NCBI GenBank assembly: GCA_030562195.1
Contig: JAUJPP010000002.1
Span: 1 to 64,000, forward strand
Direction of reading: 5' to 3'
DNA from: Nipponacmea schrenckii
Lineage: Eukaryota; Mollusca; Gastropoda; Lottiidae
Length of the DNA: 64,000 nucleotides
The notes beneath the pieces were generated by a model that made no database searches, was not told the origin of the DNA, and was given only the letters and a program-made list of their open reading frames with translations. A program made the position numbers and the translations under genes. This document shows, piece by piece, positions 51,301 through 54,300 of this stretch (its first letter is position 1; every line of letters starts with the position of its first letter).

Positions 51301-54300
51301 GTATGTATGCCCAAGGAGGTAGGATAGTCATGGACAGAACACAGAAAATTGTCATCAAGATGGCATATTTGGCCAAAAAATAGTTTTTTGCCAAATGGAA
51401 TGCTAGATGAACAAGCTTTTCTCTGAGCTACTGTATATGCAAAGCATTAAACAACTAAGCAACTGTGCTACTTCAACACCCCCTTTTATTTTTGGTAATT
51501 TCACAGAACTTATTTGTTCTTTTATATGGGTGTAGCCTACAATAAACCAATGACATAAATCCTTCCCTATAGAAGTAATAGAGAATGATCAATCACAACA
51601 ACCATAAAACAGCAAATATAATCAGCCAAAATTGGAAAATAGATAAATCAGTGTAGAAAATCATCATATGTACATAATATAATCATTAACCTAGATTCTG
51701 TAAATGAATGATTTTTCATTATGTTATTGCATAATGCTTTCAAGATAATTACTATTTGCCAAACTAGCAAGCAAATTCATCCTAGTTCTTATCAAGAAAA
51801 TAGCTTTTTCTCATCAATATACTTTATGGTATTCTAAAATTTGTTTGTTATTTTGCTTACATATTATATTACTATTGAATATTGAGTAAGGTCTTGGTAA
51901 ATTAACATGGGAACACTTTTGGGTAGATTGTGCAAGGTTTTTTGATGTAAAAATCATGTAGTCAACCAGAATGGACCTTATTATTTTCTTTCTCAAATCC
52001 TATTTTTCTCGAAATACCCTGTGTCAATCATGAGATTAAGATAATGGTGCTCAGGGAAAAAATAATACTTTAAATATATGGAGTGCTGTTATAAAGATAT
52101 TTTTTCAGGATAGCCTAATTCTACATTAATAATGTAGCTTATATCAACTTTGTTTTGTCACAGAATTTATGGCATTATGCTTGTATTACATAAGATAGAT
52201 GATATCTGATCATTCAATGAAAAATGTCAAAAAATCATCCATCATTGAATTTCTTGTAATAAAGATATCTTTGTAGGAGGATCACGGGAACAAATATTGA
52301 TTTTTGATGTATCAAGCATTACCTGTTATAAATGTAGAATTAGGCTGGTCAATGAGAAAATATTGAAAGCTTAAGACAAATATTCATTAATACAGAGCTA
52401 CTACACCTAAAATGTTCAAAATGTTACTGCCACCACAAAATTGGTTAAAAGCACAAAAGCACGAAGTACGATGTTAAAAGTTAAAAATATGTAATGAGCA
52501 TAAATGACACATAGTTCTATAGTACCATGGGCATCTCTGTAGTAAGCATGAGTGATGCTACGGAATCGTTCTTGTCCAGCAGTATCCCAAATCTGAAAAT
52601 ACAATTTTGCATCCTATATTCGCTACATCTACTATAAACCCATCTCCATATATACATGTATATGAAGACAAATAGAACATAATCACATTTCAACCATGCA
52701 TATTCCACTGAACACATTGTAAAGACATAAATTGTTCAGTTCAATATAAAAGTTTGAAATGCGATTATTCATCTTTTGTTTCTGATTTGTAAACCCAACA
52801 TACCGTTGGCATCACGATAGTATGCTCTAGTTATACTGCGAAATCGTTCTTGCCCTGCAGTGTCCCAAATCTGAAAAATAGCACAATTCCCTAAAGATTT
52901 GCTCAAGTTCTGATCCCAGGTTTTTTTACTTGTAATTTGAGCCCTAAAGATCTACTTTAGTCTATTACTTTAACAGAAAGTAATGTAGTACCAATAAATC
53001 TAATCCAAGCAGTGGCACTCTATCAATCAACCATACCTCATTAGAGGACCATTCCAGTCTTACATGAAAATCACAAGAACTTCTTCACACCTCTCATGTT
53101 AATTACTTTAGTGACTTATTTAGAAACAAAAGAAGTTTTTCTACTAATAAATTCAACAATTGATACATTGTGCTCAAAAGGTTTTGTAAATTCAAAGGTA
53201 GATAAAATTTACCATGAAAAGTGTTCTGATGCAAAATGCACAATATTCTTATTGGCTTCCCTTGATCTATAAGTCAACCTTTACTTCCAAAACTACCTGT
53301 GGATGTGATAAGCTCTTGACAATTTTATTTACACAAAACTAATATCTTTATGGCATCATAATCAGAAGAGAATGTTGGTCAACAGCACTGGTTTTCATTA
53401 GTCTACTAGATGATATACTGTATTATAGTTAATACTACAAAACTTGATTCTATTGAGGCTAATCTAACTGACTTATAACTTACTCATATTATATATCAAT
53501 GTTGTTTTAAAATCTGTAATCAATAAATGTCAAATAGAAATGGTATATTGATTAAGTATTTGTGTTCTTTTTTACCTGTAATTTTACTTTAGATCCATCA
53601 ACTTCCACTACTTTATTCTGAAAACAAAATGGAGGAATGAGCTCAGCTGTTAACATTTAAGTTATCAAACTTGATTCAGTCACAAAAACTGAATTAGATC
53701 TTAATGAAGTTGATAAGAAATTCAACGAAATGGAAAAAGACAGCATGAAATTTTGAACTTTCAATATCAGTATAATGAAATTAAACACAAATATCATATG
53801 GCTTCAACTAGGAGGTTTTACTGTATAAAGAAATTGACATTTAGCTTTAATTCCATATACAATATAGTGGCATATTTTGTAATAGTTAATTGAACTGGGT
53901 TGATATGTCATATGGCTACATGACACAAGTTAATGTTCTTGAAGTCCACTGTGACCCTAGAATTGATCCCCTCTATCTGAATAATCACTCAAATTAATAC
54001 CAACTGACCACAGACAACTAAAAATTGTCTGTGACCATCAGCAAAGCGCCAATCACTGGTGCTTTAAAATTGTTCTCCTGCAATTAAAACAGTAGTACAA
54101 AATTAAAGCTTTGGTCTTTATTATATGCTTGTAAGGATTTTACTTTATCTATTGAACAACAATATATTGAACAATAGATAGAGATTCTGATATATACAGT
54201 TTTGATGAATAAATATTCATAGAGCTGATGATTGAACTTATGCAAAAAGAGATATATACAATAATTGGACATGTATTATAAGTTTTAATAATAAAAAGTG

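What the first reader, a model, noticed from the sequence alone, without database searches (positions are those of the whole stretch)
52526..52870. Tandem mutually exclusive switch-II exons in RAB37
Two 67-bp exons with the same phases lie 211 bp apart and both encode the DTAGQ/switch-II segment. They differ at 16 nucleotides. Eleven of these are synonymous, and the remaining five fall in just two codons (residue 119 Arg/His, residue 126 Asn/His). This pattern shows long-term purifying selection on both copies. Joining both would shift the frame and hit TAG at codon 12 of the second, so they must be alternatives. Human RAB6A/RAB6A' is a known parallel in which a duplicated exon near switch II changes effector choice. 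A swap in RAB37 could similarly give two GTPases with different effectors or GAPs from one locus.
Basis: partly seen in the sequence, partly recalled or inferred. Interest (0 to 1): 0.8.

Follow-up and report, generated by a model that had tools for sequence, protein, structure and literature searches.

The report
Swappable switch-II exons in Rab26/37
A limpet-like animal's Rab26/37 gene carries two interchangeable copies of the exon that encodes part of its on/off switch, and proteins of both kinds are listed for molluscs and a brachiopod, so one gene probably makes two versions of a vesicle-traffic protein that choose different partners.

Summary
Confirmed. Two 67-nt exons, 52804-52870 (4a, [11 protein letters not shown]) and 52526-52592 (4b, [11 protein letters not shown]), lie 211 nt apart on the minus strand of a Rab26/37 gene, with ag/gt sites and the same phase. 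They differ at 16 bases: 11 synonymous, 5 in two codons. Using both or neither gives a premature stop. Synonymous sites are near saturation and intron flanks are unrelated, so the copies are old.

Database proteins show both versions as isoforms in 12 species (11 molluscs and the brachiopod Lingula); an annelid has the 4a type. In the capped hit lists no named vertebrate or arthropod does. Oyster-type contigs of about 2.6 kb carry full ORFs of each type, which suggests both are expressed.

The swapped residues are the two most variable of 22 positions among 19 Rab paralogues of this genome. One aligns with a residue that differs between human Rab6 isoforms. Site 1 is Arg/Lys in 54 of 54 4a-type proteins and His in 44 of 45 named lophotrochozoan others.

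Upstream of the window the gene also has an alternative P-loop/switch-I exon; all four combinations are listed in gastropods. A partner change is inferred, not shown. Nine literature searches found no description.

The parts
59675..59833 (-). Exon 1, start codon and N-terminal extension ([11 protein letters not shown]...YDLSCK) of the standard form
   Evidence: tblastn with the Patella caerulea protein; assembled ORF
55848..55958 (-). Exon 2, standard P-loop/switch-I exon ([12 protein letters not shown]...STVGIDFR), 111 nt. Its alternative, exon 2' ([37 protein letters not shown]), lies outside the window at contig C2:75819-75929, with exon 1' at C2:84710-84832
53576..53617 (-). Exon 3 ([14 protein letters not shown]), ends in phase 0
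52804..52870 (-). Exon 4a, switch-II exon of the Arg..Asn type ([22 protein letters not shown] + G)
   Evidence: 54 of 251 retrieved proteins with the motif have Arg or Lys at site 1
52593..52803 (-). 211-nt intron between 4a and 4b; holds one TGCATG (RBFOX-type motif, name recalled) at 52700-52695
   Evidence: a first-order Markov model gives this motif by chance in 16% of such introns, so a lead only
52526..52592 (-). Exon 4b, switch-II exon of the His..His type ([22 protein letters not shown] + G), the residues of human Rab26; donor ATG|GTACTA is the weakest of nine donors scored (5 of 9 consensus matches; 4a has 7)
50625..50677 (-). Exon 5 (completes the split codon to Ala: [18 protein letters not shown])
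49601..49723 (-). Exon 6 ([11 protein letters not shown]...GNKCD...KLAK)
49036..49112 (-). Exon 7 ([25 protein letters not shown])
48316..48418 (-). Exon 8 with the C-terminal Cys-Cys-Ser-Ser end (prenylation-type, recalled) and the TAA stop

Best explanation
4a and 4b are mutually exclusive coding exons of one Rab26/37 gene. A transcript that encodes the full protein keeps exactly one, because the 67-nt length makes double use or skipping run into a stop. The choice swaps two residues of the switch-II helix and the loop after it, Arg/His at site 1 (residue 119) and Asn/His at site 2 (residue 126), and leaves the other 20 residues of the exon, the catalytic DTAGQ included, unchanged. These are the positions at which the Rab paralogues differ most, so the swap most likely retunes which effectors, GEFs or GAPs the protein accepts without changing GTP chemistry. 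The duplication is probably older than the separation of molluscs, brachiopods and annelids; the 4b type is ancestral and the 4a type a lophotrochozoan addition. Shown here: the pair, its coding logic, its sequence age signal, its distribution in the retrieved proteins and the type-specific conservation of site 1. Inferred: expression in this species, regulation of the choice, the exact date and the partner change.
For: Coding logic and splice sites. Saturated synonymous against sparse nonsynonymous change and unrelated flanks. Three protein searches gave 256 proteins; 5 lack the motif and were dropped; 54 of the remaining 251 have Arg or Lys at site 1. Of these 54, 44 carry an organism name: 42 mollusc entries, Owenia (annelid) and Lingula (brachiopod); ten come from unnamed sources (tables). 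Contigs of 2.55-2.6 kb carry a full 226-residue ORF of each type: R..N P0068 (named C. gigas, 51 contigs) and P0066 (unnamed, 27), H..H P0086 (named C. gigas, 4) and P0085 and P0098 (unnamed, 1 each); P0068 and P0086 differ at 3 of 226 residues, which are I/V, R/H and N/H in the exon-4 stretch. Site 1 is Arg in 52 and Lys in 2 of 54 and His in 44, Asn in 1 of 45 named lophotrochozoan others. Sites 2 and 1 rank first and second in entropy among 22 exon positions over 19 Rab paralogues of this genome; a random pair would be that pair once in 231. Rab6A chain 2gil reads RDSTV and Rab6-isoform chain 1yzq reads RDSAA, with T/A at site 2. Site 1 lies between two Rab33B residues named in its Atg16L1 interface, M99 and Y103 (passages of PMC7395093; register inferred).
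Against: No RNA evidence from this species. Isoform labels in databases are mostly predictions, and one Mytilus model joins both exons (P0003). That the sites are the most variable across Rabs also fits weak constraint; site 2 drifts within the 4a type (N 44, Q 5, E 2, H 2, T 1 of 54). In an alpha helix site 1 would not be on the same face as M99 and Y103, so it need not touch an effector. Rab6A and Rab6A' are called largely redundant (PMC7538953 passages). Four heterodont bivalve species (Mercenaria, Ruditapes, Dreissena, Mya) and Capitella show only H..N, and Octopus only N..H, so the pair seems dispensable in some lineages. For the annelid Owenia only the 4a type was retrieved, so the pair is not shown there. 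The one intron-pairing test made found nothing.
Confidence: 0.72

Rival explanations
1. Both exons are used but the two proteins are functionally equivalent; the duplication persists because it lets the gene be spliced under different tissue controls or tunes its dose.
For: Only 2 of 22 residues change; Rab6A/A' are described as largely redundant; site 2 drifts within the 4a type; some lineages appear to have only one type.
Against: Site 1 is Arg/Lys in 54 of 54 proteins of one type and His in 44 of 45 named lophotrochozoan others, which a free choice of residue would not give, although isoforms and sister species are not independent. The two changed sites are the two most variable of the exon among paralogues.
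Confidence: 0.2
2. The extra exon acts mainly as a poison exon: joint inclusion or double skipping yields a premature stop and lowers Rab26/37 levels by nonsense-mediated decay.
For: Both-in and both-out transcripts stop after 137 and 111 codons.
Against: A poison exon need not keep a functional switch-II peptide, yet 4a encodes one with saturated synonymous change and conserved residues, and proteins with Arg or Lys at site 1 are listed for 28 named species, a few of them partial models (tables).
Confidence: 0.05
3. Recent tandem duplication, assembly error or decaying pseudoexon.
For: Copies lie only 211 nt apart.
Against: 79% identity over 77 nt, i.e. the exon plus 10 intron bases, unrelated flanks beyond, open frame and splice sites in both, and isoforms of both types in other molluscs and a brachiopod.
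Confidence: 0.02

Closest known systems
Human RAB6A / RAB6A' (alternative splice forms)
   Same: A Rab whose isoforms differ by a few residues around switch II; PDB chains 2gil and 1yzq show V/I, T/A and V/A differences, the T/A at the position of site 2 here. Rab6A preferentially binds Kif20A (passage of PMC7538953).
   Different: Another Rab subfamily and animal group; here two sites change, including site 1 within the helix (Arg/His), which is Pro in both Rab6 chains. That RAB6A' arises from a duplicated exon, and that 2gil and 1yzq are the A and A' forms, is recalled; Echard et al. 2000 was seen only as a citation and is not held.
Vertebrate RAB26 and RAB37 (two genes)
   Same: Closest solved relative is human Rab26 (2g6b, E 6e-88); exon 4b carries the Rab26 residues H..H; the exon-2' type (GIGFT) occurs in proteins named Rab-37 of vertebrates.
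   Different: Vertebrates use two genes; in the retrieved set Rab-37 entries mostly read H..Q and Rab-26 entries mostly H..H or H..N, with Q..H in two and H..Q in a few labelled Rab-26; no named vertebrate in the lists has Arg or Lys at site 1.
Human RAB37 N-terminal splice variants
   Same: [quoted passage not shown] that these are the same variants is inferred).
   Different: That module changes the P-loop/switch-I segment, not switch II; no 4a type was seen in retrieved vertebrate proteins.

Membership tests
Rab GTPase of the Rab26/37 group | Ras-family G domain | tested here: met
   PF00071 at 210 bits for both switch-II forms and 205 for the exon-2' form; cut-off 21.6
Rab GTPase of the Rab26/37 group | Best relatives are Rab26/Rab37 proteins | tested here: met
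   Named best hits are Rab-37/Rab-26 of molluscs; the top one, from Patella caerulea, is 96% identical over the query; best PDB chain is human Rab26. No tree was made
Rab GTPase of the Rab26/37 group | Single gene copy in this genome | tested here: inconclusive
   50 matches in the 399-Mb assembly; in the 30 loci read the [16 protein letters not shown] signature was seen only at the window's locus; the other 20, weaker matches were not read
Mutually exclusive exon pair | Homologous tandem exons, same phase, splice dinucleotides present | tested here: met
Mutually exclusive exon pair | Only one-at-a-time use keeps the reading frame | tested here: met
Mutually exclusive exon pair | Transcripts with each exon alone in this species | not testable with these tools
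   No RNA reads available; in other molluscs both isoforms are listed and 2.55-2.6 kb oyster-type contigs carry each ORF, their reading as transcripts being inferred
Mutually exclusive exon pair | Competing RNA base pairing between introns (one known mechanism, not required of all pairs) | tested here: inconclusive
   Only one pairing was tested: the last 300 nt of the upstream intron with the 211-nt intron, no stronger than shuffled controls (-60.7 against a mean of -66.7; 32 of 40 shuffles reach it); the fuller test timed out
RAB6A/RAB6A' kind | Isoforms prefer different effectors | not tested
   Needs binding assays

The most novel reading that the evidence does not exclude
One lophotrochozoan Rab gene is a 2x2 combinatorial switch: an alternative switch-I exon (GIDF or GIGF, the latter lacking the aspartate that in Rab33B binds Atg16L1) combined with an alternative switch-II exon (His..His or Arg..Asn) gives four GTPases with separately chosen effector surfaces. 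It would do by exon duplication what vertebrates did by keeping RAB26 and RAB37 as two genes.
Probability: 0.35. Interest if true: 0.72.

Novelty: new variant of a known kind. Interest (0 to 1): 0.55.

Why it matters
How Rabs acquire new effectors is usually asked by comparing whole paralogues that differ at dozens of sites. Here one gene appears to have kept two proteins that differ at two residues over a span that reaches across phyla, and those residues are the ones that its paralogues vary most. If the forms differ in partners, it is a ready-made minimal pair for testing which switch-II positions set Rab specificity, in a Rab group tied to secretory granules and autophagy, and an independent case to set beside RAB6A/RAB6A'. 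Coupled with the alternative switch-I exon it offers four natural combinations.

Tried and rejected
Recent duplication or assembly error: judged very unlikely. A pairing structure between the introns: no signal in the one pairing tested (the fuller test timed out). A regulatory motif: one TGCATG midway between the exons, expected by chance in 16% of Markov introns, so kept only as a lead; one more lies 1227 nt into the next intron; no other mollusc DNA was available to test conservation. The name 'Rab-21' of an Elysia hit (P0141) suggested a Rab21-Rab37 fusion; I see no Rab21 part in its sequence, so dropped. The apparently double hits in Anopheles, Rotaria and an unnamed 389-residue protein are tandem or partial G-domains of other Rab-like proteins, not exon pairs. 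The association of exon 2' with the Arg type (19 of 54, against 2 of 45) is confounded by how the three searches were aimed and is not claimed. Literature: nine searches listed no paper on this exon pair in Rab26/37; only titles and abstract starts of the listings were seen, besides the passages of the nine papers opened, and the held library lacks most subscription papers.

Full report
What is there. The gene runs on the minus strand. Its standard form has eight coding exons: 59675-59833, 55848-55958, 53576-53617, one of 52804-52870 (4a) or 52526-52592 (4b), 50625-50677, 49601-49723, 49036-49112 and 48316-48418. With either 4a or 4b the joined exons give an open protein of 244 residues ending in CCSS; with both they stop after 137 codons and with neither after 111. 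The two forms differ only at residue 119 (Arg in 4a, His in 4b) and residue 126 (Asn in 4a, His in 4b).

It is more than chance. The copies are 79% identical over 77 nt, the exon plus 10 intron bases. Beyond that the introns are hardly more alike than random intron pairs (20 and 22 of 60, splice signals included, against 17.6, sd 3.5). Synonymous differences fall on 11.5 of 14.0 sites, beyond correction for multiple hits, and nonsynonymous ones on 4.5 of 52.0. None of 200,000 random placements of 16 differences left as few as two residue changes. The simulation treats all sites alike, and one pair of exons cannot say which copy was constrained; the comparison across species does that.

Which gene. 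The best solved relative is human Rab26 (2g6b). The closest database protein is from the limpet Patella caerulea, 96% identical over the query, so the window probably comes from a limpet (inference). In the 399-Mb assembly 50 matches were found; 30 loci were read and only this one has the [16 protein letters not shown] signature. Vertebrates have two genes here, RAB26 and RAB37, and the mollusc gene is best called Rab26/37 (inferred from best hits and shared exons, not from a tree).

How old and how widespread. Three protein searches retrieved 256 proteins; 251 carry the switch-II motif and are counted, 5 do not and were dropped. Site 1 is Arg or Lys in 54 of 251. Of these, 44 have an organism name: 42 mollusc entries (gastropods; bivalves including mussels, oysters, a scallop and a freshwater mussel; the chiton Liolophura), the annelid Owenia (Arg..Gln) and the brachiopod Lingula (Arg..Gln); ten come from unnamed sources. 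The named vertebrates, arthropods, tardigrade, hemichordate and amphioxus in the lists have His or, in two mammals, Gln there. In some searches the query was the Arg type and hits were ranked on that stretch alone, so an Arg-type protein from a group whose His-type protein is listed should have ranked above it. The lists stop at 120 rows, so absence is well supported for vertebrates and less so for groups with more divergent flanks. For Owenia only the Arg type was retrieved, so the pair itself is not shown in annelids.

Expression. In oysters, full 226-residue ORFs of both types sit on contigs of 2.55-2.6 kb: P0068 (R..N, 51 contigs) and P0086 (H..H, 4 contigs) are named Crassostrea gigas, and P0066 (R..N, 27), P0085 and P0098 (H..H, 1 each) are unnamed and identical to these at 225 of 226 residues. 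P0068 and P0086 differ at 3 of 226 residues, in the exon-4 stretch (I/V, R/H, N/H). Such contigs are too short for the unspliced gene, judging by its size here, so they are probably transcripts (inference; the source code 'lgn' is not explained by the tool).

Losses. Mercenaria, Ruditapes, Dreissena, Mya and Capitella show only His..Asn and Octopus only Asn..His. An Arg-type protein of the three clams listed (Mercenaria, Ruditapes, Mya) should have outranked their His..Asn proteins there, so loss or lack of annotation in that branch is likely.

What the swap does. Across 19 Rab paralogues of this genome the two swapped positions have the highest entropies of the 22 exon positions: 3.08 bits at site 2 and 2.58 at site 1, next 2.16. 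The 19 are 18 of the 30 loci read plus the Rab at window 16465; three of the 30 are this gene itself and nine were left out as incomplete, with an insertion, or not Rab-like. Three of the 19 peptides (L021, L023, L027) were put together from two exons, and several lack the first residues. The chance of picking that pair is 1 in 231. This alone could mean weak constraint. Against that, site 1 stays Arg/Lys in 54 of 54 of one type and His in 44 of 45 named lophotrochozoan proteins of the other; isoforms and sister species among these are not independent. Site 2 is looser: N 44, Q 5, E 2, H 2, T 1 of 54, and H 38, N 7 of 45. That is the pattern of a class-specific residue at site 1 and a more tolerant one at site 2.

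Structural setting. By counting from the Gln that mutants change (Rab26 Q123; Rab6 Q72), the sites are Rab26 H131 and H138, and the second is Rab6 position 87. PDB chains 2gil (Rab6A) and 1yzq (Rab6 isoform) differ at V/I, T/A and V/A, the T/A being exactly site 2. In the Rab33B-Atg16L1 complex the paper names D69 (salt bridge to Atg16L1), the triad F70, W87, Y103, and M99 near the effector (passages of PMC7395093). In the register given by the Rab33-like locus L010 (its name recalled) site 1 falls two residues from M99 and two from Y103, so contact is not shown. Rab26 binds Atg16L1 with low affinity (PMC4337689 abstract and passages) and RAB37 is reported to interact with ATG5 instead of ATG16L1 (PMC5943352 passages), so partner choice does differ within this group.

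A second alternative module. Database proteins of Patella vulgata and Haliotis rubra revealed an isoform with a different P-loop/switch-I segment. Its exons are in this genome on the same strand upstream of the window, exon 2' at C2:75819-75929 and exon 1' at C2:84710-84832. Exons 2 and 2' are both 111 nt and in the same phase, so unlike 4a and 4b they can be joined in frame, and 32 of 251 retrieved proteins, from vertebrates and arthropods, contain both in tandem; whether these are real or predicted is not known. The exon-2' type changes GIDF to GIGF, removing the aspartate that corresponds to Rab33B D69 (register inferred). It occurs in vertebrates, arthropods, a tardigrade, a brachiopod and molluscs, so it is probably older than the 4a/4b pair. 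All four combinations occur among gastropod proteins: standard with His (P0001), standard with Arg (P0002), alternative with His (P0015), alternative with Arg (P0106).

How the choice may be made. Frame logic makes the exons exclusive in coding terms. The 211-nt intron is long enough to be spliced, so steric exclusion is unlikely (general knowledge). The 4b donor matches the consensus at 5 of 9 positions, the lowest of nine donors scored; 4a has 7. The one intron pairing tested gave no signal. The most economical model is a regulated competition in which the weak 4b donor needs help; this is a guess.

Literature. Rab6A and Rab6A' are called largely redundant with Kif20A the only known effector difference (PMC7538953 passages). 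Human RAB37 has N-terminal splice variants with tissue differences (PMC9714508 passages). Nine searches listed nothing on a switch-II exon pair in Rab26/37. The isoforms themselves are in public protein databases, so the pair is annotated but, as far as these searches show, undescribed.

Verdict. It is an independent case of a known kind, a Rab with alternative switch-II exons, with two twists: it is shared across phyla and it is combined with an apparently older alternative switch-I exon.

Noticed in passing
contig C2:75819-75929 and C2:84710-84832 (beyond the window; L004, L005): Alternative P-loop/switch-I exon and its first exon of the same Rab26/37 gene; the type with GIGF instead of GIDF is found in vertebrate, arthropod, tardigrade, brachiopod and mollusc proteins.
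   Followed up: partly
32 of 251 retrieved proteins, within P0074-P0120: Vertebrate and arthropod Rab37 entries that contain both P-loop exons in tandem in one protein, which would be a Rab with two P-loops; real isoform or prediction artefact is open.
   Followed up: no
window 16465-17876, minus strand: Exons of a second Rab gene, probably Rab21 (name recalled), about 30 kb downstream of Rab26/37.
   Followed up: no
window 54381-54491: A 53-nt direct repeat in two copies (spacing 58, 81% identical) within intron 2 of the gene.
   Followed up: no
proteins P0025, P0028, P0031, P0033, P0048, P0077: Four heterodont clams and Capitella show only His..Asn and Octopus Asn..His: apparent lack of the Arg-type exon in several branches.
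   Followed up: partly
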